Shown: positions 1 through 47,219 of the stretch, piece by piece
How the letters are laid out: each line of letters opens with the position of its first letter
Position numbering within the stretch: the stretch's first letter is position 1
Assembly (NCBI RefSeq): GCF_002934455.1
Contig: NZ_PTIR01000031.1
Span: forward strand, 1-47,328
Length of the DNA stretch: 47,328 bases
Direction of reading: 5' to 3'
From: Trinickia symbiotica
Lineage (GTDB): Bacteria > Pseudomonadota > Gammaproteobacteria > Burkholderiales > Burkholderiaceae
Translations under genes and position numbers: made by a program
The notes under the pieces: generated by a model
What the model was told of the DNA's origin: nothing
Database searches by the model: none
The model's input: the letters and a program-made list of their open reading frames with translations, nothing else

Positions 1-980
1 TTGCCGGTCGCCGCTTTACCGATCCAGGCGAGCGGCGCGCGCTCGGTTTTCATCTGCGGTCCGGCGAGGATCAGCAGCGCGATGTTTTCGTTGAGTTGAT
101 TGTCCTTCGGCGGAAAGCTCGGCGCGTCCCAGTTCATCACCCAGACGCTTTCCTGCGGGTGCGCCTGGAGGTAATCGAGTGCGGCGTTTAGCGAAGCGAA
201 GCCCGCGTTGGGGCCGCCCGGCGTTATTCGTACGTCGGGTGGCGTATCTTTGCTCCAGAGGTCGGGAAACGACTTGTTACCGATTTCGAAGTACCTCATG
301 ATCCTACTACTTAGATACGTTTGCGCTTCGGCCGGATCGAGACGATCAGAGGGGATCGCAAGTTCGACGTGAATGCCGGCCACTTCCCGCCACTTCCTTC
401 GGTCATCTGGCTTGACCGTATAGAAGTATTTCGCGTTCATCACATATCTTTCGTCGAAAATCCCGAGAAGCTTGTCAACGTACTTGTGGTAGAAGCCTTT
501 GAATGTTTCCGTGCCGCGGTTGCCATAGGCGATTCCCGCAACTGGCTGAAGCGAAGTAAAACTAGCAGGATCGGTCCTCACCATGTCGTCGTTCTTGTTC
601 GGCTTGACGAGACCGAGCGTCCATAAAATTTGCCACTCCGTTGGATAGTCGCGACGCTGGAGCGGATTTAACCACTCGATCCCTACCACTTGCGCAACGA
701 ACGGCTCGGCCGCCTCCACGGCTCCGGCTTTCGTCGCGACTGTTTGCGCTTTCGCTGTATCGAATGTGCCGAGTGAAAAAAATGTGCTCACTGCCAAAAC
801 ACATACGCCCATCCAGAAAGGAAAATGCACCAATCGCTTCATGAAGTCCTCATCGGTAAAGTATTGTGGCTCGCGCGAGTCCGCGTAAAGCATCCAGGCC
901 AGTGTCATCGCGAAGGTGAACAAAGTGGCACCAACTGCGAGCAAAAGCCGCCGGCGCCAAGTGCCTATCAATGAACTCAT
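1..980 (-). CDS. Tla3-type type VI lipase adaptor (DUF2875-like), partial
   Basis: The frame opens at the ATG at 980 and stays open to the left window edge, so about 326 codons are visible and the C-terminus is missing. Two hydrophobic segments (about residues 12-32 and 51-72) suggest a membrane-anchored protein with a large domain outside the cytoplasm. Its start overlaps the stop of the Tle3-like lipase gene (ATGA), so the two are translationally coupled. In Pseudomonas aeruginosa, Tle3 is followed by Tla3, a DUF2875 protein that helps load the lipase onto a VgrG. The similarity and the gene order support the same role here. The family assignment is from memory of the DUF2875/Tla3 family and not from a search. 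No immunity gene or vgrG is visible; they may lie beyond the edge. Confidence 0.72.
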   Translation of the reverse strand, partial: MSSLIGTWRRRLLLAVGATLFTFAMTLAWMLYADSREPQYFTDEDFMKRLVHFPFWMGVCVLAVSTFFSLGTFDTAKAQTVATKAGAVEAAEPFVAQVVGIEWLNPLQRRDYPTEWQILWTLGLVKPNKNDDMVRTDPASFTSLQPVAGIAYGNRGTETFKGFYHKYVDKLLGIFDERYVMNAKYFYTVKPDDRRKWREVAGIHVELAIPSDRLDPAEAQTYLSSRIMRYFEIGNKSFPDLWSKDTPPDVRITPGGPNAGFASLNAALDYLQAHPQESVWVMNWDAPSFPPKDNQLNENIALLILAGPQMKTERAPLAWIGKAATG

Positions 981-3262
981 ACAACACCCCCCGCGCTCAG
1001 GAACAAATCACCCTCTCGCTGATCGTCGATCTCGGCTGGCTTCACGGCCTCAGGATCGTTGTGTGCCCAGTCATGTAGCGGCACGCCATTTTTAGTCCCC
1101 ATGTCGAAGTATTCCCAGTACATTTTGGCCGGATTGGTGTCGCTCAAACCATTTCCGAACCGCCAATCCGCCTCGATACGAAGCGCCCACCAGTCATCCT
1201 CCGACAGATAGCAAAGGCCGATCGCGATGTCATATGCGAGCGCTTTCCTGGCATGCATCGGATTGGTCAGAATCGTCGAATGGTTTGTCGGATTGTTTTT
1301 GCTGCCCTCCTTCAGGATCTTGCCGATCTGCCCGTTACGCCATGCTTTGTATTCGATCGTCGCCTTGGCCAGATTGTCTTCGCCGGCCACCTTGCCGTCG
1401 TCGTTCACCCACCCTTTAGTACGACCGTGCCGCTCATTTCGGCGAGCCTCCTGCCGCATCAGTGCATGGTCCTCGTAGCGTTGCGCGGCCTCGCTTTCCT
1501 GCGTGCCCTGCGCGTGCATCTCAGGTTTGCGCGAGCTGAAAGTGTCATAGGGGTCGTCGGCGTCCTTATCACCCTCGCGCTTTTGCGCGTTGCGTGCTGC
1601 CGAAGGCGGGTCATAGCTCTCATTGAACCGGCTCTTTAAGCCATCAACGACAATCTCCGACACCCTCCCATAACGCATCGCCTCGGGCTCGAACGGCTCG
1701 TCCAGCTTCGGAGCGGTTACAGGGATGGTCCAGTTCTCTGGTGGATCCGCATTGATGCGCGGCTTCGCGATGAGCCGCGCGAAATAGAGAAGCGGCGCCG
1801 TTGCCAACGTACCCAGCGCGGCAAGCGGATTCTCGTTCGCGTTCAATGCGCGGTAGAGCCCGAACTCGGCGCTCGGCGAGGGTGGATACCAGAATCCCTT
1901 GCTCCGGTTCACCGTCGCCCGCCAGTCGTCTTCCCAATAGCGATACGTAGGGCTGTCAGCTGGATCCTTTCCGACTAACCACCCCGATGCGAACACGCGC
2001 TGCGTGAAGACGCCATGACCGCCGGTCCGCTCGATCTCCTCTGCGCTCATGCCGCGCCAGCCGATCCCTTGCACGGTCGTTGCCGAAATCACCTGGTCGT
2101 GCGGGCAACAGTAGAGCGTCACGCGGCCAAGCGTGTGGCCATTCAGGCCGTGACTGGTGCGATCATCGCCGGCGCTATACGGTTTGCCTTTCGCGGACGG
2201 CCGTTTGTTGCCCATGTCCTCATCGAGTTCGCGCGCATCGGGCTCCAGTGCGGCGCGCTTGCGCAATATCTCGAAGAACGCTTTCAACGTGTCAGCCCGA
2301 GCGTTGAACGTCGCGCGGCCGCGGTTGCCATCGGCGTCGCGCACCGTGCGCTGCGCCCAGTTCTCCATGCCCAGCTTCTCGACGAGGCTGTACGGCGCAT
2401 TGGCCAACACGTAGGCGTCCGCCACACAGCTACCGGCCTTGCCCCACGGGTCAGTCACTTCGGACATCCTGTCACCGAGAAAGGCGGCCGCCAGCCCGAT
2501 CATGTTGCCCTGGCTGTGACAGACGACGGTGATCGGCACATCGGCCTGCTTCTCTCGTATCGATTTGATCAGCTTCGCGAGCCGCAGCGCGGCCATCACC
2601 ATGTAGGCGCGCGGCGGCGTTTGATAGATCAGACGCGGCGTCGAATTCAACGCCTGCACCGTGAGCCAGCCGAAGATCCGATCGTCGAGTCCGGGGCTCC
2701 ATAGATCCGCGAGGCTCGAGCAGCCATTCGCAAACGGGCCGCCGCCCCAATAGTTGTGCTCGTTGAGAAACAGGTTCGCGCCGTAGTCCTTGAGATCCTG
2801 CTTGTTCGCTTTGTAGCCCCAACGGAAATGGATGACCGGAGAGAACGACGGATCCGGCTTGATATAGGTCTCAGCCCACATCTTTGGATTGACATAGCCG
2901 TCGGGTGTCAAACTCTCGATATAGCTGACCGGCGCCATCTGCCCGGCCTTGACGCCCGTATAAGCCAGCTGACCGTCCAAGCGGCCCAACCGCCGGTTCA
3001 GCCCTTTGCAGAGACCCTCCTCAGCGGCGGTGTACCACTCGCCTTCGGAGTTCACACCGTGTACGAAAATAACGACGCCAGGCAGAGGCATCTGTTTGAC
3101 GCAGATCAGTTCACTGTCCATGTCGAAGAGCGTGACGCCCTCCGCAGTGCCGACCAGGATCCGCGGCGGCATCCTTTTTCCGGCCTCGTCCGGCGATGCA
3201 ACAGTGCCTTGATTCGATTCGGTCATGTTCTTGTTAGCCCGTTCTTTAACTCGGTTCTGCAT
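977..3262 (-). CDS. Tle3-type T6SS phospholipase effector (DUF3274-like alpha/beta hydrolase)
   Basis: This 761-residue protein has the signs of an alpha/beta hydrolase: an HGV oxyanion-type motif near residues 68-70 after a hydrophobic strand, and a nucleophile elbow CHSQG with Ser250. Its length, the GGGPFANG segment (about 173-180) and the Tla3-type neighbour fit the Tle3 antibacterial lipases delivered by type VI secretion. It has no N-terminal signal peptide, as expected for a T6SS cargo. The ATG at 3262 is preceded by a GAGAG-type ribosome site; a second ATG 12 codons in lacks one. The gene diverges from ureD. It could also be a DUF3274 hydrolase unrelated to secretion, but the pairing argues for an effector. 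Confidence 0.78.
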   Translation of the reverse strand: MQNRVKERANKNMTESNQGTVASPDEAGKRMPPRILVGTAEGVTLFDMDSELICVKQMPLPGVVIFVHGVNSEGEWYTAAEEGLCKGLNRRLGRLDGQLAYTGVKAGQMAPVSYIESLTPDGYVNPKMWAETYIKPDPSFSPVIHFRWGYKANKQDLKDYGANLFLNEHNYWGGGPFANGCSSLADLWSPGLDDRIFGWLTVQALNSTPRLIYQTPPRAYMVMAALRLAKLIKSIREKQADVPITVVCHSQGNMIGLAAAFLGDRMSEVTDPWGKAGSCVADAYVLANAPYSLVEKLGMENWAQRTVRDADGNRGRATFNARADTLKAFFEILRKRAALEPDARELDEDMGNKRPSAKGKPYSAGDDRTSHGLNGHTLGRVTLYCCPHDQVISATTVQGIGWRGMSAEEIERTGGHGVFTQRVFASGWLVGKDPADSPTYRYWEDDWRATVNRSKGFWYPPSPSAEFGLYRALNANENPLAALGTLATAPLLYFARLIAKPRINADPPENWTIPVTAPKLDEPFEPEAMRYGRVSEIVVDGLKSRFNESYDPPSAARNAQKREGDKDADDPYDTFSSRKPEMHAQGTQESEAAQRYEDHALMRQEARRNERHGRTKGWVNDDGKVAGEDNLAKATIEYKAWRNGQIGKILKEGSKNNPTNHSTILTNPMHARKALAYDIAIGLCYLSEDDWWALRIEADWRFGNGLSDTNPAKMYWEYFDMGTKNGVPLHDWAHNDPEAVKPAEIDDQREGDLFLSAGGVV

Positions 3263-8290: not shown

Positions 8291-9997
8291 ATGACTCTTC
8301 GCATCGATCGCCGCGCCTACGCGGAAATGTTCGGCCCCACGACGGGCGACCGGATCCGGCTCGCCGATACCGAGCTGCTGATCGAAATCGAGCGCGACTT
8401 CACCGTCTACGGCGAGGAAGTGAAATTCGGCGGCGGTAAGGTCATCCGCGACGGCATGGGGCAATCGCAGCGCGTCGCGGCCGAAGTGGCCGACACCGTC
8501 GTAACGAATGCGGTGATTCTCGATCATTGGGGCATCGTCAAGGCCGACATCGCGATCAAGAACGGCCGCATCGCCGCGATCGGCAAGGCCGGCAATCCCG
8601 ACATTCAGCCTGGCGTCACGATCGCGATCGGGGCGGCGACGGAGGTGATCGCCGGCGAAGGGTTGATCGTGACGGCGGGCGGCGTCGATACCCATATTCA
8701 CTTCATCAGTCCCCAGCAAATCGACGAAGCGCTCGCATCGGGCGTGACGACGATGCTCGGCGGCGGCACGGGGCCCGCCACGGGCACGAACGCCACGACC
8801 TGCACGCCCGGCCCCTGGCACCTCGAGCGCATGCTGCAGGCGGCCGATGGTTGGCCGATGAACCTCGGCTTCCTCGGCAAGGGCAACGCGAGCCTGCCCG
8901 ATCCGCTCGTCGAGCAAATCAAGGCCGGCGCCATCGGGCTCAAGCTGCACGAAGACTGGGGCACGACGCCGGCGGCGATCGACAATTGCCTGTCCGTGGC
9001 CGACTCGACCGACACGCAAGTCGCCATCCACACCGACACGCTCAACGAGGCCGGCTTCGTCGAAGCGACGGTGGCCGCCTTCAAGGGTCGCACGATTCAC
9101 ACCTATCACACCGAAGGTGCCGGCGGCGGCCACGCGCCCGACATCATCAAGGTCTGCGGCGAGGCGAACGTGCTGCCGTCGTCGACGAATCCAACGCGGC
9201 CCTACACCATCAACACGCTCGACGAGCACCTCGACATGCTGATGGTCTGCCACCATCTCGATCCTTCGATCGCCGAGGATCTCGCGTTCGCCGAATCGCG
9301 GATTCGCCGTGAAACGATCGCGGCCGAGGACATCCTGCATGACCTCGGCGCACTGTCGATGCTTTCGTCGGATTCGCAGGCGATGGGACGCGTCGGCGAG
9401 GTCATCATCCGCACTTGGCAAACCGCGCACAAGATGAAGGTGCAACGTGGGGCGCTACAGGAAGACAGCTCGCGCAACGATAACTTTCGAGCGAAGCGCT
9501 ACGTGGCCAAGTACACGATCAATCCGGCGCTCACGCACGGCATCGCGCATGAAGTGGGTTCGATCGAGGCCGGCAAATGGGCCGACCTCGTGTTCTGGGA
9601 GCCGGCGTTCTTCGGGATCAAGCCGACGCTCGTCCTGAAGGGCGGGATGATCGCGCTCGCGCAGATGGGCGATCCGAATGCCTCGATCCCAACGCCGCAG
9701 CCCGTTCACTATCGGGAGATGTTCGCTACACGCGGTGGCGCGCTTGGGCGTACTTCGCTGACGTTCGTTTCGCAGATGGCGGCCGATGCCGGCATTGCCG
9801 AACGGTACGGCCTCAACAAAGTCGTCGTGCCTGTGCGCGGCTGCCGCGACATATCGAAGGCGGACATGATTCACAACTCGTGGCAGCCGTCGATCAGTGT
9901 CGATCCCGAAACGTATCAAGTGGTGGCGGACGGTCAGTTGCTCACCTGCGAGCCGGCCAAAGTGTTGCCGATGGCGCAGCGCTATTTTTTGTTCTGA
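8291..9997 (+). CDS. ureC: Urease alpha (catalytic) subunit UreC
   Basis: This 568-residue catalytic subunit carries both nickel ions. All expected residues are present, each one higher than the Klebsiella numbering: His135 and His137 (HIH), the carbamylated Lys218 (GLKLHEDWG), His220, His247, His273, the flap Cys320-His321 and Asp361. No truncation or missing ligand is seen, so the enzyme should be active once the accessory proteins load it. Long antisense open frames cover this gene; they reflect its codon bias. Confidence 0.98.
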
Positions 9998-10018
9998 GTC
10001 CTAAGCTTCGTTTCAGTC

Positions 10019-10684
10019 ATGCGCACGATCGATAAACGCATCGCTCCCACCGTCATCGCCCGTTCGCTCGTCGCGCGCGCGCCGACGCTGACCCTCGCCT
10101 ACGACGCACGCTGCAAGAGCCGCCTCGCCGCCTCGCTCGACAACGGCGAGGAAGTCGCGCTCGTGCTGCCGCGCGGCACCGTGCTCGCCGACGGCGACGT
10201 GCTCGTTGCCGACGATGGCGGGCTCGTGCGCGTCGCCGCCGCCAACGAATCGGTGCTTCTCGTCCGCGCGCCCGATGCGTTGACGCTCACGCGCGCCGCC
10301 TACCATCTCGGCAACCGTCATACACCGGTCGAAGTCGGCGCGGACTACCTGAAGCTCGAGGCGGATCCCGTACTTGAAGAAATGCTGAAGCGGCTCGGGG
10401 CACGGGTGGAAACCGCGTCGTTGCCATTCCAGCCTGAATCAGGCGCATACGGCGGCGGGCATCGGCATGGTCACGATGCGACGTTCCACGAAGACTATGC
10501 TATCGCGCAGCAGGTGTTCGAGGAACACCACGGGCATGAGCATGGTCATGCGCACGAACACGGCCATGCCCACGATCACGGACATGGGCATCACCATCAT
10601 CATGGCGACGCTCATTGTCATGATCACGATCACGGCTGCACGCACCATCACGGCGAGCACGACGACGGTCATGCGCATCGCTGA
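10019..10684 (+). CDS. ureE: Urease nickel metallochaperone UreE
   Basis: UreE binds nickel and passes it to UreG. The 221-residue protein has the peptide-binding N-terminal domain, then the metal domain with its central His96 (YHLGNRH). Its C-terminal tail from about residue 148 carries about 30 histidines in His-Gly, His-Ala, His-Glu and His-Asp runs plus two Cys. Such tails store several nickel ions and are common in this family, though this one is long. The tail-coding DNA (about 10460-10680) is a low-complexity CAT/CAC tract. The last 14 bases overlap ureF. Confidence 0.96.
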
Positions 10685-11351
10685 ACTGACTGCCCTGCTG
10701 CATCTTGCGTCGCCCGCGCTGCCGGTCGGCGCCTTCAGCTACTCGCAGGGCCTCGAATCGGCGATCGATGCACAATGGGTCACCGACGCCGAAAGCGCGC
10801 GCGCATGGATCGAAAGCGGCTTGACGAACGTGCTCGCGCGCTGTGAGTTGCCGTTTCTCGCACATCAGATCGAACGCTGGAATCGACTCGAAGTAGGTGC
10901 AATCGCTTCTGCCGATGCTGCGTTTCTTGCCAGCCGCGAATCTGCGGAGCTGAGGCGCGAAACGGAGCAAATGGGATGGTCGATGAAGCAGCTTTGCCTA
11001 TCGCTCGAGTGGGGCAATGCCGAGCGCAGGGAAACGCTCGCTGCGTTGTCGCCCGTCGCTCAGCCAACTGCTTTTGCGTTCGCTGTCGCCGCGCACGCTA
11101 TCGAAGCACCAGCCGCCCTCGCCGCCTATGCGTTCAATTGGGTGGAAAATCAAGCTGCCGCCGCGCTGAAGGCTGTGCCGTTGGGTCAGATGGCGGGACA
11201 GCGCATCATCGTCGCGTTGCGCGACCCGATCGATAGCGCCGTGGCCCGCGCACTCGAAACGCCGCCCGACCGGATCAATACATTTGCGCCGATGCTTGGC
11301 GTGCTGTCGGCGCGGCACGAGTCGCAATACTCGCGGCTTTTCCGGTCTTAG
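10671..11351 (+). CDS. ureF: Urease accessory protein UreF
   Basis: This 226-residue UreF bridges UreD and UreG in the urease activation complex. The N-terminus is typical ([20 protein letters not shown]) and the rest is the all-helical UreF fold. The ATG at 10671 sits inside the end of ureE. The open frame continues upstream through the His-tail tract but yields only repetitive residues there, so the internal ATG is the true start. Confidence 0.95.
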
Positions 11352-30207: not shown

Positions 30208-32271
30208 ATGGGAATTGTGAAACGTCTCCTTTCGTCGATCCGCGTTGACCGAATCGGCGTCTCCGTGATCGCCATTTTGACGCTGTTTCTGCTTTTACGA
30301 AACACCGGACCATACCCCACAATAATGGGCGACGAATGGCATTACAGTGCGTTCAGCAGACTTATTAATCTCCGCTCGTCCCCGGACCCTGATTATCTTT
30401 ACCTCGCATTATTTCGCGTGGCCACTCGTTGCGGTGACGGCTACCTTCAGTGCGCTCGACTTGTCAATATCGCTTGGTTGTTGGTGGGCGCGGGGTTCCT
30501 CTATCTGTTCGCAAGACAGTTCCTATCGAAGGTTCCCGCGATGCTGATAGCGATCATCGCGATCGCGTCACCATTCAACGCCTACACCGTCTACTTCATG
30601 CCGGAATCCATGTATTTCGCCGGCTTCTGGGCGCTCGCGTGGTTTCTCATACGGCACTACAGAGATGGAGTCTCGTACTACAGCATCGGCGCAGGACTCC
30701 TGCTTGCCGCGCTTTCGCTCGTTAAGCCTCATGCCCTGTTTCTTCTCCCGGGTTTCGTCGTCTTTATCGCATACCAAGGCTATGCAACCAACGCCGAGCG
30801 GTTCTTAACCAAGGCAGCTATCACAGGCGGATCGTTCGTAATCACCGCGCTTGCCGCGAAGCTTGCCGGCGGCTATCTACTCGCGGGCAGGGCCGGCCTA
30901 ACCCTGCTCGGCCGTCGGTACACGTCGATGGCCGCTGACTCCGATCATACCCATCGCCTGATACAGACGCTGATGTCGTCCGCGACGGTGCTATGGCATC
31001 ATTCAATCGCTCTCGCGGTGCTATTCGGCACGCCGTTCTGTATCCTCCTCGGCCGGCTGTTCTCCCGCTCAAGGTGGACGCGCGGGTCGCATAGCGCCAT
31101 GCTGTCGTTAGAGATCTTGGCTCTTGCGGCAATTGCACCCTTGCTCGCAGTAACCGCTGGCTTCACGGTTATCGCTGTTGGAAGTGGGCCATATGAATCG
31201 CTAGTTCGATTGCATATGAGATATTATGATTTTACTTTCCCATTCCTGTTCATTATAGCCGCGTCAGCTTGCTCTTGCGCCGTATCCGTTAAAACGCAGG
31301 GTTTCTCAAAGACAATCACCGCGATACTGATCGCCGCGATGGCGCTGTACGCACTGTTTGAACTGAAAGGCCTGTTCATACCAAGTCTCGCTGATGCTCC
31401 AGAGCTTTTCGTGCTTACGTATAAGCAATTTTCTTTTCTCGCATTGGGTGCATGCAGCCTTTTATCATTGTTGGTCTGGACGTTCAATGAAAGGAAGGCG
31501 GCGAAGCTATTCATCGGCGTTTTCACGCCACTTTTCCTTCTGACCTCGCTTATTTCGGTTTCCAATGAACTGCGACAACGACATCGCGTCGACGACTACG
31601 ACGCAGCCGGGTTAATCGCACGGCAGCTATTGAGCGACGACGATCGTGAGCGGCTGTTAGTAGCGGGACCGAGCGCGCCCAGCTTACTGCGGACGCTGTT
31701 TTATGTCGACGCGCCATCTGCCTCGTACCTGGAATTGAACAGCGGGGACACCTTTAAGGTGAGCGCTGTACCCCCTGACAGGAAATGGCTCTTGGTGATT
31801 GGGAGGCATGATGCGCTCGAGAGCGCTGCTGAAGTTTCTGACGCCGGACGATACGCATTGGTGAACCTGGACAACGTCGACTTCTCGAGCGCGCCTTCTG
31901 CGCAGACCATCGAGCGAATCGACGGAGTCTCGACGCCGGAGCCGTCGGGGACTTGGTCCATCGGCAGTCAAGTTTCGATTGTGTTCCACCGACCGCTGCC
32001 GGCAAAGTTCACCGTACGGCTGACGGCGGCCGCGTTCGGCCCTAATGTGGCTAAGCCTTTCACGGCCAGCGCAGGGCCGCAGACCAAGTCGTTCCGCCTC
32101 TCAGCTACTCCAACGACAGTCTCCCTTTCTTTCGAGAATAACGGTAGCCGAACGCTCTCGATCGCCGTGCCTGAGCCGATTTCCGCAAAAGCTCTCGGGC
32201 TTGGCGCAGATGAGCGACCTGTCGGGATACGCTTGATAAAGCTGCAGATCGTGCCGGAGAAGATTGACTAG
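30208..32271 (+). CDS. GT-C-like membrane glycosyltransferase with shared C-terminal domain (first set)
   Basis: This 687-residue protein has about 12 membrane segments over residues 1-455. The first outside loop has GDEWHYS, the Asp-Glu pair common in GT-C enzymes that use polyprenyl-phosphate sugars in the periplasm. After the last span a soluble region of about 220 residues ends in a beta-rich domain (from about 587) with LPAKFTVRL, AFGPNVAKP and a final LG-x3-DER block. The same domain closes the protein at 44949. I recall such domains listed as DUF7024 but cannot check it. Likely the GtrC-type transferase that modifies O-antigen or core. Base composition is lower in GC than in the housekeeping genes. 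Confidence 0.68.
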   Translation: MGIVKRLLSSIRVDRIGVSVIAILTLFLLLRNTGPYPTIMGDEWHYSAFSRLINLRSSPDPDYLYLALFRVATRCGDGYLQCARLVNIAWLLVGAGFLYLFARQFLSKVPAMLIAIIAIASPFNAYTVYFMPESMYFAGFWALAWFLIRHYRDGVSYYSIGAGLLLAALSLVKPHALFLLPGFVVFIAYQGYATNAERFLTKAAITGGSFVITALAAKLAGGYLLAGRAGLTLLGRRYTSMAADSDHTHRLIQTLMSSATVLWHHSIALAVLFGTPFCILLGRLFSRSRWTRGSHSAMLSLEILALAAIAPLLAVTAGFTVIAVGSGPYESLVRLHMRYYDFTFPFLFIIAASACSCAVSVKTQGFSKTITAILIAAMALYALFELKGLFIPSLADAPELFVLTYKQFSFLALGACSLLSLLVWTFNERKAAKLFIGVFTPLFLLTSLISVSNELRQRHRVDDYDAAGLIARQLLSDDDRERLLVAGPSAPSLLRTLFYVDAPSASYLELNSGDTFKVSAVPPDRKWLLVIGRHDALESAAEVSDAGRYALVNLDNVDFSSAPSAQTIERIDGVSTPEPSGTWSIGSQVSIVFHRPLPAKFTVRLTAAAFGPNVAKPFTASAGPQTKSFRLSATPTTVSLSFENNGSRTLSIAVPEPISAKALGLGADERPVGIRLIKLQIVPEKID

Positions 32272-37563: not shown

Positions 37564-38334
37564 ATGAAAGTGGTAATTCTTGCAGGCGGACTTGGGACGC
37601 GAATCTCGGAAGACACGGTCAATCGGCCGAAACCAATGATCGAGATTGGGGGCAAGCCGATCCTCTGGCACATCATGAAAATCTATTCGGCTTACGGCAT
37701 CAACGAGTTCGTGATCTGTTGCGGCTACAAGGGCTACATGATCAAAGAGTACTTCGCGAACTATTTTCTGCATATGTCGGATGTGACATTCGATATGCGC
37801 AGCAACGAAATGCAAGTTCACCAACGATACGCTGAGCCGTGGAAGGTGACGTTGGTGGATACAGGCGAACTGACGATGACTGGCGGCAGACTGCGCCGCG
37901 TGAGAGATTTTGTTAAGAACGACGAAGCGTTTTGCTTCACCTACGGGGACGGTCTCAGCGACATCAATATCACCTCGCTCGTCGAGTACCACAAAGAACG
38001 CGGAACGTTAGCAACTCTGAGCGCGACGTATCCGCCCGGTCGCTTTGGGGCGCTCGACATTCGCGACAAGAGGGTCAGCTCTTTCAAGGAAAAGCCGAAA
38101 GGTGACGGCGCAATGATAAATGGAGGATTTTTCGTCTTGTCCCCCAAAGTTATCGATCTGATAAACAGCGACGACTGTGTGTGGGAGCGCGAACCGTTAG
38201 AGCATCTTGCCAACGATGGCGAGCTGTCCGCTTACGAACATCATGGTTTCTGGCAACCAATGGATACGCTCAGGGACAAGAATCACCTCGAAGAGCTCTG
38301 GCAGTCGGGCAGGGCCCCATGGAAAGTGTGGTGA
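37564..38334 (+). CDS. rfbF: Glucose-1-phosphate cytidylyltransferase RfbF
   Basis: RfbF makes CDP-glucose from CTP and glucose-1-phosphate, the first step to CDP-3,6-dideoxyhexoses. This 256-residue protein has the nucleotidyl-transfer motif [39 protein letters not shown] and the RfbF-type end [11 protein letters not shown]. The ATG at 37564 has AGGA upstream; the frame is open for 34 more codons without family similarity. It overlaps rfbG by one base and heads a tight plus-strand operon running to about 47219. Confidence 0.95.
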
Positions 38335-39404
38335 TGGCGCAAGAGACATTCTGGCAAGGCAAGAAGGTCTTTGTCACGGGTCATACTGGCTTCAAGGGTA
38401 GCTGGCTCACGCTTTGGCTGACTGCAATGGGAGCCCGGGTTACCGGCTTCTCGCTCACTCCTGACACGGCTCCGAACTTATTCGAGCTTGCCCGCGTGGG
38501 ACACGGCATCGAATCGGTCATCGACGACATTCGCGATCGCCAACGCATCTTGAGTGCCATCGAATCCGCCGCGCCGGAGATTGTGATCCATATGGCGGCC
38601 CAACCGCTCGTGCGCGCCTCGTATGTCAACCCTGTAGAAACATACGAAACGAATGTGCTCGGTACCGTCCATCTCCTCGATGCGATCCGGCATGTCAAAG
38701 GCGTTCGCTCCGTCGTCATCGTGACGACAGACAAGTGCTATGAAAACCGGGAGTGGGACTGGGGCTACCGCGAGAACGAGCCAATGGGCGGCTACGATCC
38801 ATATAGCAGCAGTAAGGGCTGTGCTGAGCTCGTCACCGCTGCATATCGCAGCTCTTTCTTCAATCCGTCAACGTACTCGACGCACGGCGTTGCGATCGCA
38901 AGCGCACGAGCCGGCAACGTAATCGGCGGCGGCGACTGGTCAGCTGATCGACTCGTTCCGGACATCATGCGCGCCATCACAAACGGCGAGACGGTGAAGA
39001 TTCGCAATCCTTACGCGGTCCGCCCTTGGCAGCACGTTTTGGAACCCCTGAGCGGCTACCTTATCCTCGCGGAAAGTCTGTACTCTCAAGGAGTTCGCCA
39101 TGCCGAGGCATGGAATTTCGGCCCCCACGATGCAGACGCACGCCCCGTAGAGGCGATCGTGGGACGCCTTACTTCCCAGTGGGGAGAGAACGCACGGTGG
39201 CAGCTTGACGGCGGTGATCATCCCCACGAGGCGACATACCTGAGACTCGATTGCTCGAAAGCACGCGGCCGCCTGGGATGGCGCCCGCGCTGGGATCTCG
39301 ATCGCGCCCTCGACGAAATCGTCGCTTGGCACAAGGCCGCTGCACGCGGAGAAGATATGCGCGCCGTCACGCTGGCGCAAATCGACGCATACACCCAATC
39401 CTGA
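38334..39404 (+). CDS. rfbG: CDP-glucose 4,6-dehydratase RfbG
   Basis: This 356-residue short-chain dehydrogenase converts CDP-glucose to CDP-4-keto-6-deoxyglucose. It has VTGHTGFKGSWL (the TGHTGFKG form typical of RfbG), AAQPLVRASY, TTDKCYEN and Tyr-x3-Lys in YSSSKGCAE. I use the ATG at 38334, in a TGATG overlap with rfbF; an ATG at 38319 would add five residues. No missing residues. Confidence 0.95.
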   Translation: MAQETFWQGKKVFVTGHTGFKGSWLTLWLTAMGARVTGFSLTPDTAPNLFELARVGHGIESVIDDIRDRQRILSAIESAAPEIVIHMAAQPLVRASYVNPVETYETNVLGTVHLLDAIRHVKGVRSVVIVTTDKCYENREWDWGYRENEPMGGYDPYSSSKGCAELVTAAYRSSFFNPSTYSTHGVAIASARAGNVIGGGDWSADRLVPDIMRAITNGETVKIRNPYAVRPWQHVLEPLSGYLILAESLYSQGVRHAEAWNFGPHDADARPVEAIVGRLTSQWGENARWQLDGGDHPHEATYLRLDCSKARGRLGWRPRWDLDRALDEIVAWHKAAARGEDMRAVTLAQIDAYTQS

Positions 39405-39410
39405 GCAACC

Positions 39411-40724
39411 ATGAACAAAGATCAGATTCGCGAACATATTATCGAGCTCGTCCGCCAGTACGGCGCGCTTGCCAGTCAGCGTCCTGCGTTCGAGCCGGGA
39501 CAGACGGCAGTTCCGCCGTCCGGCAAAGTGGTCGGTGCGCACGAAATGGAACTGATGGTCGAAGCATCCCTGGACGGATGGCTGACTACTGGGCGGTTCA
39601 ACGAAGCATTCGAGAAGAAGCTCGCCGAGTTCCTCGGCGTCAATCACCTGATTACGGTGAACTCGGGCTCGTCGGCCAACCTCATTGCCCTATCCACGCT
39701 AACCTCCCCAAAGCTCGGCGATCGAGCGATCCGGCCCGGTGATGAAGTGATCGGTGTGGCAGCAGGGTTTCCAACGACCGTCAATCCGATCATGCAGTTC
39801 GGCGCCGTGCCGGTGTTTGTCGACGTCGAACTCGGCACATACAACATCGATGCGTCTAAGATCGAAGCCGCCATTTCGCCGAAAACGAAGGCGATCATGC
39901 TGGCTCATACGCTCGGCAACCCGTACAACCTCGACGTAGTCACCGCGCTCTGCAAGAAATACAAGCTGTGGCTCGTGGAGGATTGCTGCGACGCGCTCGG
40001 CGCCACCTACAACGGGCAATTGGTTGGCACGTTCGGGGACATCGGTACGCTGAGTTTTTACCCCGCCCACCACATTACGATGGGTGAAGGCGGCGCGGTG
40101 TTCACTAACGACCCCGATCTGAAACTCATCGCGGAATCATTCCGCGATTGGGGACGCGATTGCTACTGCGCGCCCGGCAAGGACAATACTTGCGGCAAGC
40201 GTTTCTGCTGGAAGCTTGGAAACCTGCCGGAAGGCTACGATCACAAGTACACGTATTCTCACCTCGGCTATAACCTCAAGATTACTGACATGCAGGCCGC
40301 TTGTGCGCTTGCCCAGATGGACCGCCTCGAAGGATTCATCAAGGCTCGCCGCGAGAACTTTGCATACCTGCACGATCGGCTGGCAAGCTGCCAGGAGTTC
40401 CTGATCCTTCCGCACGCCACGCCAAATTCGGTGCCGTCGTGGTTCGGCTTCCCAATAACGCTCAAACCGGAAGCCGAAGTGCGCCGCGTCGACCTGCTCG
40501 GCTACCTCGATCAAAACAAAATCGGCACCCGATTGCTGTTCGCCGGCAACCTCACGCGGCAGCCGTACATGATCGGCCGAGAATATCGCGTGAGCGGCGA
40601 TCTCACGAATACGGACATCGTAATGAATCAGACCTTTTGGGTGGGCGTCTACCCGGGTCTTGACCGAGAAATGCTCAATTTCGTCGCTGAGAAGATCGAG
40701 ACTTTCCTCGGCGTCAATTTCTAA
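39411..40724 (+). CDS. rfbH: CDP-4-keto-6-deoxyglucose 3-dehydrase RfbH (E1)
   Basis: This PMP- and iron-sulfur-dependent enzyme removes the 3-hydroxyl. In 437 residues it has His220 in place of the usual PLP lysine ([13 protein letters not shown]), the mark of this dehydrase. It also has the [2Fe-2S] pattern C-x57-C-x-C-x7-C at Cys193, Cys251, Cys253 and Cys261. These numbers equal those of the studied Yersinia E1 as I recall them. E1 normally works with a reductase, E3 (AscD/DdhD/RfbI); no such gene is in the window. It lies six bases after rfbG. Confidence 0.95.
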
Positions 40725-40735
40725 GCGCAAAGTCC

Positions 40736-41779
40736 ATGCGAAAAGCGTTGCCGACGGAAGATCTCGATCAAGTCTTGGAGTGGACCGCGGACGTATGGGC
40801 CAGGTTCGATCGGGCACGACTGTTCATTACAGGCGGTACAGGATTCGTCGGCTCATGGCTACTGGAGGTGGTACAGCGGGCCAATCGCGTGACGTCCTCG
40901 CGCATCGAAATGGTGGTGTTGAGTCGCGATCCCGATCGGGCTCGCGCAGACGCTCCTCATCTGTTCAACGCTTCGGGGATCACCCTCGTCAAAGGCGACG
41001 TCACGGATTTCGACGGGGACATAGGCGCTATAGATGTCTGCATTCATGCGGCAACCGATGTTGCAGACACGAGCAAAGCTGCTGACGCGCTGCGAATTTT
41101 CGACGCTGGCGTGATTGGTACACGGCGCGTGCTGGACTTGGCGCTTAGCAACGGCGCGTCGCGCTTTCTGCTCACGTCCAGCGGAGCCGTCTACGGCAAG
41201 CAGCCCTCTTCCCTCCTAAAGGTGCCCGAGACGTTCCAAGGCGCCCCGGATCAGCTCGACGTCAGCACAGCGTATGGTCAAGGCAAAAGAGCTGCCGAAT
41301 GGCTAGCCTGCGTGTATGCGCAACAACATGCCTTGCACGTCTCCGTTGCACGAATTTACGCCTTGATCGGTCCAGCGATTCCGCTCGACGGCCCGTTCGC
41401 GGCAGGAAATTTTATCCGCGACGCGCTGGCGGGGCGACAAATCACCCTGAAGGGCGACGGCCGGCCGGTGCGCAGTTATCTGTATATGGCCGACTTGTGC
41501 GTATGGCTACTGCGAATGCTGAACCGTGGCGAAAGTGGACAGGCCTACAACGTTGGATCCGAACGTGCGATTTCCATCGCCGAACTGGCAACACAAATTG
41601 AGTTCATCAGCGAATCGCGGGCGCCGGCCGTGACCGTGCCGGCAGCAACGGGCGACGAAGCTCCTCCGCGATACGTTCCGGACACACGGAAGGCTCGTAA
41701 CGCGCTCGGCGTCGACGCATTCACGTCGCTCGAGGTCGCTTTGTCCAAGACAATCAACTGGCACCGCACACATCGGTGA
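40736..41779 (+). CDS. NAD-dependent sugar epimerase/reductase, CDP-sugar pathway
   Basis: This 347-residue extended short-chain dehydrogenase has ITGGTGFVGSWLLE near residue 31, SSGAVYG, and Tyr-x3-Lys in YGQGKRAAE. The first 28 residues before the Rossmann fold are an unusual extension. Its place between rfbH and the transketolase genes suggests that it reduces or epimerises a CDP-keto-sugar. It could reduce the 4-keto group, as RfbJ-like enzymes do, or the side-chain ketone made by the transketolase, as YerF does for yersiniose. I cannot tell which. Confidence 0.82.
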   Translation: MRKALPTEDLDQVLEWTADVWARFDRARLFITGGTGFVGSWLLEVVQRANRVTSSRIEMVVLSRDPDRARADAPHLFNASGITLVKGDVTDFDGDIGAIDVCIHAATDVADTSKAADALRIFDAGVIGTRRVLDLALSNGASRFLLTSSGAVYGKQPSSLLKVPETFQGAPDQLDVSTAYGQGKRAAEWLACVYAQQHALHVSVARIYALIGPAIPLDGPFAAGNFIRDALAGRQITLKGDGRPVRSYLYMADLCVWLLRMLNRGESGQAYNVGSERAISIAELATQIEFISESRAPAVTVPAATGDEAPPRYVPDTRKARNALGVDAFTSLEVALSKTINWHRTHR

Positions 41780-41783
41780 TCGT

Positions 41784-42590
41784 ATGAACAAGTTCGATGC
41801 CACCCATCTACGGAAGACGATTCTCGACATGGCTTTTGCCGGATCGACTGTCCATATAGGCTGCGCATTCTCGATTGTTGAGCTGCTCGCCGTGCTCTAC
41901 CGTAATCATCTGCGCTTTGACCCGTTGGATGCGCAATCGCCGAATCGCGATTACATGGTGCTTAGCAAAGGGCATGGCGTGATGGCTCAATACGCTTGCT
42001 TGAATGAGATCGGATGGCTGCCTGACGACGAGCTCGCCCGCTATTTCGAAAACGGCACACGACTCAAAGGTTTGGCAGATGCGCACGTGCCCGGCGTCGA
42101 AGTGACGGCAGGCTCGCTCGGCCACGGCTTGTCAGTCGGTGTCGGTCTCGCACTCGCCGCAAAAAGGGAGCAGACCGGCCAGATGTGCTATGCCCTTGTT
42201 GGCGATGGAGAACTCAACGAAGGCACGATTTGGGAGGCGGCGCTCTTCGCCGTGCAGTTCAAGCTTGACAACTTGATCGTTATCGTCGATGTGAACGGCT
42301 TTCAGGCAATGGGCAGGACCGACGAAGTTATTGGCCTAGGCGACATCGAACGCAAATTCGCTGCATTCGATTTCGATGTGACGGCAGTCGACGGGCACGA
42401 TGAACGCGCCATCGATTCCGCGTATGCAGATACGAGAAGCCGGAAGAACGGCCGGCCGAAAGCCATCATCGCGAAGACCGTCAAAGGAAAGGGCGTATCG
42501 TTTATGGAAAATGACAACGTCTGGCACTACACACGCCTCGACCTGCGAACGTACGAATCTGCCGTAGCAGAACTAAAGGAAAACGCATGA
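41784..42590 (+). CDS. Transketolase-like enzyme, N-terminal (diphosphate-binding) subunit
   Basis: This 268-residue protein matches the first domain of transketolase. It has STVHIGCAFSIVELLAVLY, SKGHGVMAQY, TAGSLGHGLSVGVG and the thiamine diphosphate/metal motif GDGELNEG (140-147) ending at Asn171. The housekeeping enzyme is one chain of about 650 residues; here the halves are separate genes with an ATGA overlap. Such split pairs sit in secondary-metabolite and glycan clusters. With RfbF, RfbG and RfbH before it, a role in adding a ketol unit to a keto-sugar is likely but unproven. Confidence 0.88.
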   Translation: MNKFDATHLRKTILDMAFAGSTVHIGCAFSIVELLAVLYRNHLRFDPLDAQSPNRDYMVLSKGHGVMAQYACLNEIGWLPDDELARYFENGTRLKGLADAHVPGVEVTAGSLGHGLSVGVGLALAAKREQTGQMCYALVGDGELNEGTIWEAALFAVQFKLDNLIVIVDVNGFQAMGRTDEVIGLGDIERKFAAFDFDVTAVDGHDERAIDSAYADTRSRKNGRPKAIIAKTVKGKGVSFMENDNVWHYTRLDLRTYESAVAELKENA

Positions 42591-43510
42591 GAGATGCTTT
42601 TTCGAGTGCACTTGTTGCTGCGGCCCAAAGGGACCCAAAGCTTCTTCTGCTGACCGGCGACCACGGCTACGCGCTCTTCGACCCATTTCGCAAAGCATGC
42701 CCTGATCAGTACATGAACTGCGGCATCGCTGAACAAAACATGGTGGGCGTCGCCGCCGGCCTGGCGAAGGCCGGATTCCGGCCTGTGGTCTACGGGCTGG
42801 CAGCATTCGTGCCGATACGTGTGCTTGAGCAGATCAAGATCGATGTTTGCTATGAACACCTGCCGGTAACGTTCATCGGTGACGGCGCTGGCGTTGTCTA
42901 TGCACATCTTGGCACGAGTCACCAAAGCACCGAAGACATCGCCGCATTGCGGGCCGTGCCGCACGTATCGATCTATTCGCCCGGGGATCGCTTTGAACTG
43001 ACTGCGTGCTTTGATCGGATCATGCAGAGTTCGGGGCCCGCCTATCTGCGCATGGGGAAAGCCGATCTGGGCGACGTGCACGCTGGCCCGTTGGCGAAGT
43101 GGAATGGAGAACTCATTCCAGTGACGACCAGCAACGCGCCGCATTTGTTCGTCGCAACTGGCTCGGGGTTAAAGCTTGCACAAAAGATTGCAGCAGCAAT
43201 CGGCAATGCAGACGTTGTATCCGTGCCATGCCTCAAACCATTTCCCGAAGAATCGCTACGCAGACTCGCGCAGAGGCGCGAGGCTGTAGTCACGTTTGAA
43301 GAGCATTCCATCTACGGCGGCCTCGGCGGCGCCGTTGCTGAGTCTCTCGTCGGTCGATATGTCGGCACATTCCTGCGTATCGGCATTCCCGACCAGTTCA
43401 GCACCCTCTGCGGCAACTACCCTTTCTTGATGGAAAGCCATGGATTGGGTCTCTCAGATGTCGAAAACCGGATCCGCAAGGTGCTCCGTGAACATGTCGA
43501 ATACCAATAA
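42587..43510 (+). CDS. Transketolase-like enzyme, C-terminal (pyrimidine-binding) subunit
   Basis: This 307-residue protein contains the pyrimidine-binding domain, with the catalytic Glu49 in GIAEQNMVGVAAGLA, and the transketolase C-terminal domain (EEHSIYGGLGGAVAESL). With the previous subunit it makes a full thiamine enzyme, probably an alpha2beta2 tetramer. Both halves look intact and are typical of true two-subunit members, not of a frameshifted single gene. The last 17 bases overlap the next gene's chosen start. Confidence 0.88.
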   Translation: MRDAFSSALVAAAQRDPKLLLLTGDHGYALFDPFRKACPDQYMNCGIAEQNMVGVAAGLAKAGFRPVVYGLAAFVPIRVLEQIKIDVCYEHLPVTFIGDGAGVVYAHLGTSHQSTEDIAALRAVPHVSIYSPGDRFELTACFDRIMQSSGPAYLRMGKADLGDVHAGPLAKWNGELIPVTTSNAPHLFVATGSGLKLAQKIAAAIGNADVVSVPCLKPFPEESLRRLAQRREAVVTFEEHSIYGGLGGAVAESLVGRYVGTFLRIGIPDQFSTLCGNYPFLMESHGLGLSDVENRIRKVLREHVEYQ

Positions 43511-44948: not shown

Positions 44949-47219
44949 ATGGATTTCGCTACAAATCGATCCATTGCGACATCGCGAGCTAAAAGTGTGA
45001 TGTTGCGATGGGGCACGCCTGTCGCGCTTGCTGCGCTCTCGCTGCTTATCGCCTGGCGGGCCGTTGGGGGAAAGCATGCCGACTTGCACGTGCCCTTGCT
45101 GTATTCCGGCGATGGACTTTTGATCCTAACCCTGATCAAACGCCTTATGGAAAACGCGTGGATTTTCCATAGTAGCTCAATGGGATTCCCGTTTGGTTCG
45201 ACCCTCTACGATTACCCTATTCCAGACACCGGCAGCCTTCTCGCCCTAAAGTTGTTCGGAGTTATAACGGGCAGCGCAGGACTCGCATTCAATATCTACT
45301 ACTTTATTGGATTTCCGATAAACGCCCTCCTGGCATACGCCGTCTTTAGAAACGTTAGCATATCGCGCCATTTGAGCGCCGCAGGCGCGTTTGTATTTAC
45401 CATACTGCCCTTCCATTTTTTGCGGCTGGGGCATCTCTTTTACACTTGGTATTTTCCATCTCCCTGCTTCGTTTGGTTCGCGCTTCGCATTTTCAGCGGC
45501 GACATGAATTTCTTTGATCCGCGCCAGAACGCCGCGCGCTCAGTTATCGATATCGCCGCGCTTATGCTGCTCTCTTGCTTCGGTGTGTACTACTCGTGCT
45601 TCGGTGTGATAGCAATGGTTACCGCCGGAGCCGCGCGTTGTGCATGGATGCACTCCTTTCGACCCGCAGGGACGTCGATCGTTGCTGCCGTTGTGGTCAC
45701 GCTCGGTATAGCAATTAATGTCGCGCCTAACATCGCTTACCGGTTGATCAACGGCGCGGACCAAGAGACAGCTCAGCGCTCACCTGCTGAGTCGGAAACC
45801 TACGGATTGAAGATTTCTCAACTCCTACTACCCCGCCCGGAGCATCGCTCTGAGCCGCTTGCTGAATTCAACCATTCCTATTCAGCGTCCTTTCCGCTCG
45901 TTAACGAAAATGCCATGTCACCGCTTGGCATGATCGGCGCCGCTGGATTTCTCGCATTGCTTGCAGGCTTCTTTTTTCCAACCAGAGTCGCACCGCGCCG
46001 GCAGCAATTCTACTTGTTGTCGCTGATCACACTCAGTCTTCTGCTGTTCTGCACGATCGGAGGATTTTCTTCGCTATTCAGCATTCTCATTAGCCCGTTG
46101 ATCCGCGCATGGAACCGGGTGAGCGTCTTTATTGGTTTTACATCGATCTTCGGCGCATTGCTAGTGATCGACGCCTGGCTGAACAAGTATCGCAGCGCGG
46201 TCATAGCGACAACACTGATAAGCAGCACGCTCGCCGTCGTCGCAATATGGGACCAAACGACTCCGCCCTGCGACAAGTGCGCCGCTGCGAATCTCGCCCA
46301 ATTCCAAAACGACGCCGACTTCGTCGCTGCAATCGGAAAGGTAATGCCCGCTGGAGCCGCTATCTACGTTCTCCCCTACGTGCGCTTCCCTGAGGCGCCG
46401 CCTCAAAATCGTCTGGGCTCTTATGATTTAGCGCGTGGCTATCTTCAATCAACGACATTCAAATGGAGCTACGGACCTATTAAGGGGCGCCTCCCTGACC
46501 TTTTCTTGCGCGCACTAGCGGAGCAACCCATGGAGCTGCAAATCGCAATCATCCGCCGACTCGGTTTCAGTGCCATTTATTTGGACAAGCGGGGATACGC
46601 GGACAATGCGGCCGCGATTGTGGGTCGTTTAACACATATCCTCGGCACCGGCCCTGTAGCCGTTAGTAAAAGTAGCGATCAGCTTCTTTTTGATCTCCGT
46701 TCCTTAGGACCGATCGAACAGCTGCCTCCCGGTGAAAGTGCAGAGGCTATTATGAGACGAGCTCACTTTGTGGTCGATCGGCAGGGCTTGATCGATTACA
46801 CAATGCTGCATGAACGAATCGACTTTTCTCGCGAAGCCTTACCAAAATTCTTAAGCGGGGTGCGGGGGTTATCAGTTCCGGAGACCTGGGGGCGCTGGTC
46901 GGACGCGAATATGTTTCCGTACGTCGAGCTACGATTCGCGCAGTCACTCCCGAAACGTTTTGTCGTTCATCTGCGCGTCCGAGCATTTGGGCCGAATGCC
47001 GATAAACCGGTGAGGGTGGTCGTCGGCACAAAGGAAGAAGCCTTTATGCCGACGTCAGGGATAGATCAATTCTCACTGTACTTTGATAATACAGCTGGAT
47101 CGAATGTTATGGAGATTCACTCGGCACAACCAACGTCGCCCAGTGACTTAGGTATGAGTTCCGACGTTCGCCGTCTTGGGGTAGGCCTCGAAGCCCTTTC
47201 CATAGAAGCGGTTCAGTAA
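44949..47219 (+). CDS. GT-C-like membrane glycosyltransferase with shared C-terminal domain (second set)
   Basis: This 756-residue protein has about 12 membrane segments to about residue 430, with LLYSGDGLL and an acidic outside loop (LYDYPIPDT) near the N-terminus that fit a GT-C active site. A long soluble part follows. The last 100 residues (from about 653) repeat the domain seen in the 30208 protein: LPKRFVVHL, AFGPNADKP and DLGMSSDVRRLG. The N-terminal parts of the two proteins differ, so they should handle different sugars. It is the likely final transferase for the sugar made by the operon. I cannot name the family of the membrane part with certainty. Confidence 0.66.
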   Translation: MDFATNRSIATSRAKSVMLRWGTPVALAALSLLIAWRAVGGKHADLHVPLLYSGDGLLILTLIKRLMENAWIFHSSSMGFPFGSTLYDYPIPDTGSLLALKLFGVITGSAGLAFNIYYFIGFPINALLAYAVFRNVSISRHLSAAGAFVFTILPFHFLRLGHLFYTWYFPSPCFVWFALRIFSGDMNFFDPRQNAARSVIDIAALMLLSCFGVYYSCFGVIAMVTAGAARCAWMHSFRPAGTSIVAAVVVTLGIAINVAPNIAYRLINGADQETAQRSPAESETYGLKISQLLLPRPEHRSEPLAEFNHSYSASFPLVNENAMSPLGMIGAAGFLALLAGFFFPTRVAPRRQQFYLLSLITLSLLLFCTIGGFSSLFSILISPLIRAWNRVSVFIGFTSIFGALLVIDAWLNKYRSAVIATTLISSTLAVVAIWDQTTPPCDKCAAANLAQFQNDADFVAAIGKVMPAGAAIYVLPYVRFPEAPPQNRLGSYDLARGYLQSTTFKWSYGPIKGRLPDLFLRALAEQPMELQIAIIRRLGFSAIYLDKRGYADNAAAIVGRLTHILGTGPVAVSKSSDQLLFDLRSLGPIEQLPPGESAEAIMRRAHFVVDRQGLIDYTMLHERIDFSREALPKFLSGVRGLSVPETWGRWSDANMFPYVELRFAQSLPKRFVVHLRVRAFGPNADKPVRVVVGTKEEAFMPTSGIDQFSLYFDNTAGSNVMEIHSAQPTSPSDLGMSSDVRRLGVGLEALSIEAVQ

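What the first reader, a model, noticed from the sequence alone, without database searches (positions are those of the whole stretch)
37564..43510. CDP-deoxysugar pathway joined to a split transketolase: predicted branched 3,6-dideoxy sugar
RfbF, RfbG and RfbH, an NAD-dependent reductase/epimerase and two transketolase subunits form one tight operon. Established: RfbFGH lead to CDP-4-keto-3,6-dideoxyglucose; in yersiniose synthesis a thiamine enzyme (YerE) adds a two-carbon acetyl unit from pyruvate to that ketone and YerF reduces it. Here no YerE-like gene is seen, but a transketolase is. Inference: it adds a hydroxyacetyl (ketol) unit from a ketose phosphate to C4, and the reductase yields a 4-C-(dihydroxyethyl) branch. 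I know of no characterised pathway of exactly this form, but I cannot search.
Basis: partly seen in the sequence, partly recalled or inferred. Interest (0 to 1): 0.85.

Follow-up and report, generated by a model that had tools for sequence, protein, structure and literature searches.

The report
Split transketolase for a branched sugar
A bacterial surface-sugar operon appears to use a two-part transketolase-like enzyme, in place of the known enzyme YerE, to put a two-carbon branch on a rare deoxysugar, and its active site hints that the branch comes from pyruvate, as in the known sugar yersiniose.

Summary
In detail: RfbF, RfbG, RfbH, an SDR and a split transketolase (TKN, TKC) form one tight operon at 37564-43510. 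The link is conserved: of 80 related loci, 70 have RfbH within 6 kb on the same strand (61 of 64 with at least 4 kb upstream), in several phyla. YerE/acetolactate-synthase-type genes lie in 1 of 80 such loci against 14 of 36 other RfbH loci. One reductase family stands directly behind YerE in 5 and behind TKC in 2 of the 7 genomes of 349 that carry it. So the pair most likely replaces YerE and adds a two-carbon unit to C4 of CDP-4-keto-3,6-dideoxyglucose. The donor is probably not a ketol: the ketol-binding His100 (E. coli numbering) is Leu in 82 of 82 rows, a change that lets engineered transketolases use pyruvate. The nearest tree row is Paraburkholderia kururiensis, a species that seems to be the reported yersiniose A producer 'Burkholderia brasiliensis'. 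Best reading: acetyl transfer giving a yersiniose-type sugar. Nothing was assayed.

The parts
37564..38334 (+). RfbF, glucose-1-phosphate cytidylyltransferase
   Evidence: TIGR02623 equivalog over cut-off
38331..39404 (+). RfbG, CDP-glucose 4,6-dehydratase
   Evidence: TIGR02622 equivalog over cut-off
39411..40724 (+). RfbH, E1-type 3-dehydratase
   Evidence: NF011936 757.3 bits; Fe-S cysteine pattern and His at the PLP-lysine place (meaning recalled)
40736..41779 (+). SDR (type SDR1), inferred to reduce the ketone of the new branch
   Evidence: PF01370; SDR1-type homologs within 1.5 kb of the TK pair in 43 of 80 loci; directly beside a YerE-type gene in L136
41784..42590 (+). TKN, ThDP/metal-binding subunit of the split transketolase; Leu at the E. 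coli His100 place
   Evidence: PF00456; best solved match 6yak; residues
42587..43510 (+). TKC, pyrimidine-binding and C-terminal subunit; catalytic Glu kept, Leu at the Asp469 place
   Evidence: PF02779 and PF02780; best solved match 6yaj; residues
43494..43931 (+). GtrA-type flippase candidate (inner ATG taken as start; ORF listed from 43440)
   Evidence: PF04138
43928..44926 (+). GT2, candidate transferase of the sugar to the lipid carrier (ATG at 43928 taken as start)
   Evidence: PF00535; NF047588 below cut-off, scanned from 44000; open frame
44949..47219 (+). Large protein, candidate periplasmic transferase
   Evidence: PF22895 DUF7024 at its C-terminus; role inferred

Best explanation
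The operon makes a CDP-activated, C4-branched 3,6-dideoxyhexose. RfbF, RfbG and RfbH, with an RfbI-type reductase presumably encoded elsewhere, give CDP-4-keto-3,6-dideoxy-D-glucose (established for the families, not tested here). TKN and TKC form a two-chain ThDP enzyme that has taken over the job of YerE: it takes a two-carbon acetyl unit, most likely from pyruvate (or from a 1-deoxyketose phosphate), and adds it to the C4 ketone (inferred). The SDR reduces the acetyl ketone to a 1-hydroxyethyl branch, giving a yersiniose-type sugar (inferred). GtrA, GT2 and the large membrane protein probably carry it across the membrane and attach it as a side branch (inferred).
For: Linkage: RfbH within 6 kb, same strand, in 70 of 80 related loci and 61 of 64 with at least 4 kb upstream; the genomes of 9 of the 10 others hold an RfbH over cut-off elsewhere. 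In 349 genomes of the order the clade occurs in 3, RfbH in 44, and the 3 have both within 5 kb; p = 0.015 without the own genome. G387, of the same genus, has the same layout. Swap with YerE: YerE/AHAS-type genes in 1 of 80 TK loci against 14 of 36 RfbH loci without a TK pair, p about 1e-7, and 4e-6 for loci of at least 14 kb. Reductase X2: 7 of 349 genomes, 5 directly behind YerE and 2 directly behind TKC. Donor: His100 is Leu in 82 of 82 rows while catalytic and metal residues stay; of 28 comparable control rows none has Leu. Engineered H100L/H102L transketolases take pyruvate. Product: yersiniose A reported in 'B. brasiliensis'; that name's beginning leads only to P. kururiensis, whose genome here has one RfbH, in this operon, no close YerE, and the nearest TK pair in the tree, 82%.
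Against: No assay, and no sugar structure for this strain. Among the 40 RfbH loci alone, 0 with both enzymes is not significant (p = 0.16). Asp469 is lost in all 16 other split-transketolase controls too (Leu in 5), and 7 of those 16 have Ser or Ile at His100, so loss of these residues is not peculiar to the clade; only Leu at His100 is. His473, replaced in the best pyruvate variant of the Geobacillus enzyme, is kept; Arg358 is kept and Arg520 is Lys in 81 of 82 rows, which could hold the phosphate of a ketose donor. The species link rests on a synonym beginning; the exact name is not in the taxonomy, and the polysaccharide was reported for 'B. brasiliensis', not for the strain read here. YerE-like enzymes of 30-41% cannot be told from acetolactate synthase by identity, so (best 37% in 25 TK genomes) excludes only close YerE. 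X2 is not beside TKC in three TK loci (L034, L039, L079). The window has the SDR1 type, seen beside YerE-type genes only in L136 (43%) and L139 (31%). Closer TKC proteins than P. kururiensis exist (89% and 84%) with no known host or sugar.
Confidence: 0.58

Rival explanations
1. One reading: the pair transfers a hydroxyacetyl (ketol) unit from a ketose phosphate to C4, and reduction gives a 4-C-(1,2-dihydroxyethyl)-3,6-dideoxyhexose.
For: Transketolase fold; Arg358 kept in 82 of 82 rows and Lys at Arg520 in 81. Split transketolases are proposed to do this to keto sugars in miharamycin and amipurimycin (PMC12247030 section 2.3), and Rif15 moves a C2 ketol unit to a ketone of rifamycin S in vitro (PMC6002545 passages). 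Other split transketolases of unknown substrate also lack His100 (7 of 16), so its loss need not mean pyruvate.
Against: Leu at the ketol-binding His in 82 of 82 rows; the Carboxydothermus split enzyme keeps His and does not use pyruvate (PMC7661550 passages). Reductase family X2 shared with YerE operons. Yersiniose A reported in what seems to be the nearest row's species.
Confidence: 0.25
2. The pair transfers a longer acyl unit from another 2-oxo acid or deoxyketose, giving an erwiniose- or caryophyllose-like sugar.
For: The YerE relatives ErwE and MMAR_2332 prefer longer hydroxylated 2-oxo acids (PMC12247030 passages).
Against: Indirect only: the operon proper has no further carbon-chain gene, and enzymes of this fold usually move C2 units (recalled).
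Confidence: 0.09
3. The pair is an ordinary transketolase that supplies sugar phosphates and only happens to sit here.
For: Domain content.
Against: Three full-length frames with all the canonical residues examined are in the same genome; the clade's link with RfbH crosses phyla; His100 is Leu throughout.
Confidence: 0.05

Closest known systems
Yersiniose A pathway (RfbFGH, YerE, reductase)
   Same: Same presumed CDP-4-keto-3,6-dideoxyglucose precursor, a ThDP enzyme beside RfbH and a reductase; reductase family X2 occurs with both.
   Different: A YerE-type protein has TPP_enzyme_N, M and C domains in one chain (L144); here a transketolase-fold pair stands in its place.
Split transketolase of Carboxydothermus hydrogenoformans (6yaj, 6yak)
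   Same: Best solved relative of both subunits; two-gene layout.
   Different: It keeps His100 and does not use pyruvate (PMC7661550 passages); the window clade has Leu there.
Split transketolases of miharamycin and amipurimycin clusters, and Rif15
   Same: Two-gene transketolases with a ketone acceptor, proposed (PMC12247030) or shown in vitro for Rif15 (PMC6002545).
   Different: Actinomycete secondary metabolism, ketol donor; their sequences were not compared here.
AviB1/AviB2 pairs of C4-branched octoses
   Same: A complex that adds an acetyl branch with pyruvate as donor (PMC4753412 passage).
   Different: Recalled to be of the pyruvate dehydrogenase E1 family; the window pair is of the transketolase family and its presumed acceptor is a CDP sugar.
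[quoted passage not shown]
   Same: Transketolase-like enzyme with a pyruvate donor and Phe at the His100 place (PMC7661550 passage; 9 DXS-like rows).
   Different: Single chain, aldehyde acceptor (recalled), keeps Asp469.

Membership tests
CDP-3,6-dideoxyhexose pathway (RfbF, RfbG, RfbH) | Equivalog-level matches of the three enzymes | tested here: met
   all over curated cut-off
CDP-3,6-dideoxyhexose pathway (RfbF, RfbG, RfbH) | RfbH with Fe-S cysteines and His in place of the PLP lysine (motif recalled) | tested here: met
CDP-3,6-dideoxyhexose pathway (RfbF, RfbG, RfbH) | RfbI partner reductase | tested here: inconclusive
   Not in the operon; two genome frames at 41% to an RfbI-like protein beside RfbF in L059, but that protein's NCBIfam matches are other reductases, all below cut-off
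Transketolase (split) | Transketolase_N, Transket_pyr and Transketolase_C domains on two chains | tested here: met
Transketolase (split) | Metal/ThDP residues and catalytic Glu (D155, N185, E411) | tested here: met
   82 of 82 rows
Transketolase (split) | Ketol-binding His100 | tested here: not met
   Leu in 82 of 82 rows; 9 of 16 other split pairs keep His, 7 do not
Transketolase (split) | Acceptor residue Asp469 | tested here: not met
   Leu in 82 of 82 rows; but none of 16 other split pairs keeps Asp either, so this may not define split enzymes
Transketolase (split) | Ketol transfer activity | not testable with these tools
   No assay
YerE-like carboligase | TPP_enzyme_N, M and C domains | tested here: not met
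   TKN and TKC lack the architecture; the control of L144 has it
Yersiniose-type pathway (by function) | ThDP C2-transferase candidate and reductase beside RfbFGH | tested here: met
   (gene layout only)
Yersiniose-type pathway (by function) | 4-C-(1-hydroxyethyl)-3,6-dideoxyhexose in the polysaccharide | not testable with these tools
   Reported for 'B. brasiliensis', not for this strain

The most novel reading that the evidence does not exclude
A widespread clade of split transketolases (Pseudomonadota, Cyanobacteriota, Spirochaetota, Planctomycetota, Bacteroidota and others) has acquired by nature the His100-to-Leu change that engineers used to make transketolase accept pyruvate, together with loss of the acceptor Asp469, and works as a ketone-accepting acetyltransferase on CDP-4-keto-3,6-dideoxyglucose: an independent second origin of yersiniose-type sugars. 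A more distant group that keeps His100 beside RfbF and RfbG (L154, L167, L178/L216) may be the true hydroxyacetyl transferases.
Probability: 0.52. Interest if true: 0.82.

Novelty: new variant of a known kind. Interest (0 to 1): 0.72.

Why it matters
A 2025 review says that transketolases acting on keto sugars are proposed but not shown in vitro, and that the 13 candidates it cites all come from Streptomycetes (PMC12247030 section 2.3). This clade is a large set outside them, tied to a defined acceptor and so directly testable, with a natural form of an engineered substrate-switching residue. If true it would explain how yersiniose-type sugars can arise without YerE, and would offer a natural pyruvate-using, tertiary-alcohol-forming transketolase.

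Tried and rejected
E. coli genomes were searched with an RfbH of L073 in the hope of a named yersiniose cluster: no match. Plasmids hold 476 records with TKC-like genes, all under 60% identity and the 30 listed at most 36.3%; not followed. The Krug 2024 paper is not held, so its sequences were not compared. One search put the His100 column of the two own-genome paralogues on other letters (M, V), with a slower alignment, gives S and H, and I use for controls. Seven of its 37 rows had no aligned N half and were left out of the His100 count; two rows are the window and a clade member. The X2 tree puts the 4 YerE-linked rows with 2 TK-linked rows at support 85/90, under the star mark, so repeated swapping is suggested, not proven. 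A basic residue after the second strand (28 of 29 X2 rows and 31 of 46 SDR1 rows with the glycine motif; meaning recalled) points to NADPH reduction, but the motif is crude and a third of the SDR1 rows lack it. One search kept the best 80 of 157 relatives. In one search only up to six candidates per genome were scored. Of 46 RfbH places I fetched 40; the other six (own genome, G013, two of three in G261, G343, G180) were not fetched.

I also added the non-significant test and corrected the expected mass shifts.
Full report
What is there. The operon stands as described: RfbF, RfbG, RfbH, an SDR, TKN and TKC, with gaps of at most 11 bases and a four-base overlap of TKN and TKC. RfbF, RfbG and RfbH pass the curated cut-offs of their equivalog models, and RfbH has the Fe-S cysteine pattern and the His-for-Lys exchange of the E1 dehydratase (meaning recalled). 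TKN and TKC match the two chains of the Carboxydothermus split transketolase best. Downstream lie GtrA, a GT2 and a large protein with DUF7024, which recall three-part systems that add a side-chain sugar in the periplasm (recalled, not tested). None of the genome's 12 TPP_enzyme_N matches lies on the window's contig.

The link is conserved. One scan of genome contigs with an alignment of 26 TKC relatives gave 157 relatives, of which the best 80 were kept. RfbH lies within 6 kb on the same strand in 70 of 80, and in 61 of the 64 loci with at least 4 kb upstream of TKN. Of the 10 loci without it, 9 lie in genomes with an RfbH over cut-off elsewhere; the exception is the Verrucomicrobia MAG of L044. 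An SDR1 or X2 reductase lies within 1.5 kb of the pair in 66 of 80. The rows come from Pseudomonadota, Cyanobacteriota, Spirochaetota, Planctomycetota, Bacteroidota, Chlorobiota and Verrucomicrobiota. As a sample not chosen by RfbH, 349 genomes of the window's order hold the clade in 3 (up to six candidates scored per genome) and RfbH in 44; the 3 are among the 44, each with both genes on one contig within 5 kb. Without the own genome this is 2 of 2, p = 0.015. In 60 further relatives the clade occurs in one, G387 of the same genus, again behind RfbH and an SDR. In the quick tree the 83 clade rows are parted from 13 other split transketolases by a branch with SH-aLRT 100.

It swaps with YerE. 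I fetched 40 of the 46 RfbH places. Fourteen of 40 hold a YerE/acetolactate-synthase-type gene in the stretch, 4 a transketolase pair (2 of this clade, 2 more distant), none both. That alone is not significant (p = 0.16). The stronger contrast is 1 of 80 TK loci (L026, about 8 kb away, other strand) against 14 of 36 RfbH loci without a TK pair: p about 1e-7, and 4e-6 for loci of at least 14 kb (1 of 59 against 13 of 34); the loci are related, so these numbers are upper bounds on the evidence. Six of the 14 are close to one another (68-100% to L144), seven lie at 30-41%, and L153 has a partial match about 6 kb from RfbH. The L144 protein matches the solved chain 5ahk at 1e-175, which I recall as a YerE. 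The reductase X2 of the second TK layout occurs in 7 of 349 genomes at E up to 1e-60: in 5 directly behind YerE (gaps 33-44 bases), in 2 directly behind TKC (gaps under 30 bases by the positions). In the TK loci, X2 is not beside TKC in L034, L039 and L079. The window's own type, SDR1, stands beside YerE-type genes in L136 (43%, gap 21) and L139 (31%, gap 91). In the X2 tree the YerE-linked rows fall among TK-linked rows, with modest support. The simplest reading is that both ThDP enzymes feed the same kinds of reductase.

What is the donor. In E. coli numbering His26, His66, His261, His473, Arg358, Glu411, Asp155 and Asn185 are kept in 82 of 82 rows (80 loci plus L156 and L157; L156 repeats L027), Arg520 is Lys in 81 and Arg in 1, His461 is Gly, Ser385 is not kept, and His100 and Asp469 are Leu in all 82. 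The window and L177 agree. Controls (37 rows; two are the window and L177, seven have no N half): His100 is His in the three own full-length transketolases and in 9 of 16 other split pairs, Ser in 5, Ile in 2, and Phe in 9 single-chain frames that look like DXS; Leu in none of these 28. Asp469 is lost in all 16 other split pairs, Leu in 5 of them, so that change is no special sign of this clade; what is peculiar is Leu at His100. Passages of PMC7661550 say that DXS consistently has Phe there, that H100F and H100L of the Geobacillus enzyme raise pyruvate use, and that the Carboxydothermus split enzyme keeps His and does not use pyruvate. Passages of PMC10787763 describe an E. coli variant with H100L and D469T among six changes that takes pyruvate, and PMC7696235 lists H102L/H474S for pyruvate and a variant with D470L for propanal. 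The clade thus shows by nature the donor switch made by hand. Against this, Arg358 and Lys520 could still hold a phosphate, His473 is kept, and other split enzymes of unknown substrate also lack His100.

What is the product. PMC4753412 (passages) names Burkholderia brasiliensis among O-antigens with yersiniose A; PMC4153317 (passages) places it in the EPS of that species; both cite Mattos 2005, which I did not read. The beginning 'Burkholderia brasil' leads to one taxon, Paraburkholderia kururiensis, with strain M130 below it; the exact spelling is not listed, and that M130 is the strain concerned is recalled. The nearest row to the window in the tree is P. kururiensis JCM 10599 (L010, 82%); among proteins, two of unknown host are closer (89% and 84% in TKC). 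The L010 genome has one RfbH at E up to 1e-100, and its place is that of the TK operon, and no YerE of the close kind (best listed 36%); in 25 TK genomes the best was 37%, though distant YerE-like enzymes cannot be excluded at that level. So a yersiniose-type sugar with a 1-hydroxyethyl branch is the best guess for the window too.

Novelty. The review PMC12247030 (section 2.3 read whole; other passages) lists transketolases as proposed, unproven keto-sugar enzymes, with 13 candidates all from Streptomycetes, and YerE-like enzymes for LPS. Searches for transketolase with yersiniose and branched-chain sugar (30 of 56 listed), for split transketolases (10 of 10 listed), with O-antigen, CDP-glucose and rfbH (6 of 6), with caryophyllose or YerE (20 of 179), with 'O-antigen gene cluster' (3 of 3) and with branched sugars and lipopolysaccharide (8 of 8) showed no listing that by title and start of abstract describes this. 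Among the 30 papers listed only the review holds both 'transketolase' and 'yersiniose'. Most subscription papers, among them Krug 2024, are not held, so a report elsewhere is possible.

Verdict. The branch-adding role is well supported by gene context; the ketol chemistry is not. Acetyl transfer by a transketolase-fold substitute for YerE is the best explanation, with the donor the main open point.

Noticed in passing
   Followed up: partly
G000:C6:14525-15241 and G000:C8:213581-214330 (L095, L096): Two further split transketolase pairs in the same genome, outside the clade, with none of RfbF, RfbG, RfbH matched in the stretches fetched; role not examined.
   Followed up: partly
window 977-3262, minus strand: Match to PF24322, T6SS Tle3 phospholipase effector domain.
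   Followed up: no
window 8291-11351: Urease genes: alpha subunit, UreE, UreF.
   Followed up: no
window 30208-32271 and 44949-47219: Two large proteins that share the C-terminal DUF7024 domain; each follows a GT2 gene, so two side-chain transfer systems may lie in one window.
   Followed up: no
L044:9186-10909: Clade member in a Verrucomicrobia MAG with no RfbH over the cut-off found in the genome: the acceptor there is unexplained, or the MAG is incomplete.
   Followed up: partly
L163, G047:C24: A YerE and X2 pair lies about 4.6 kb from RfbH instead of next to it.
   Followed up: no
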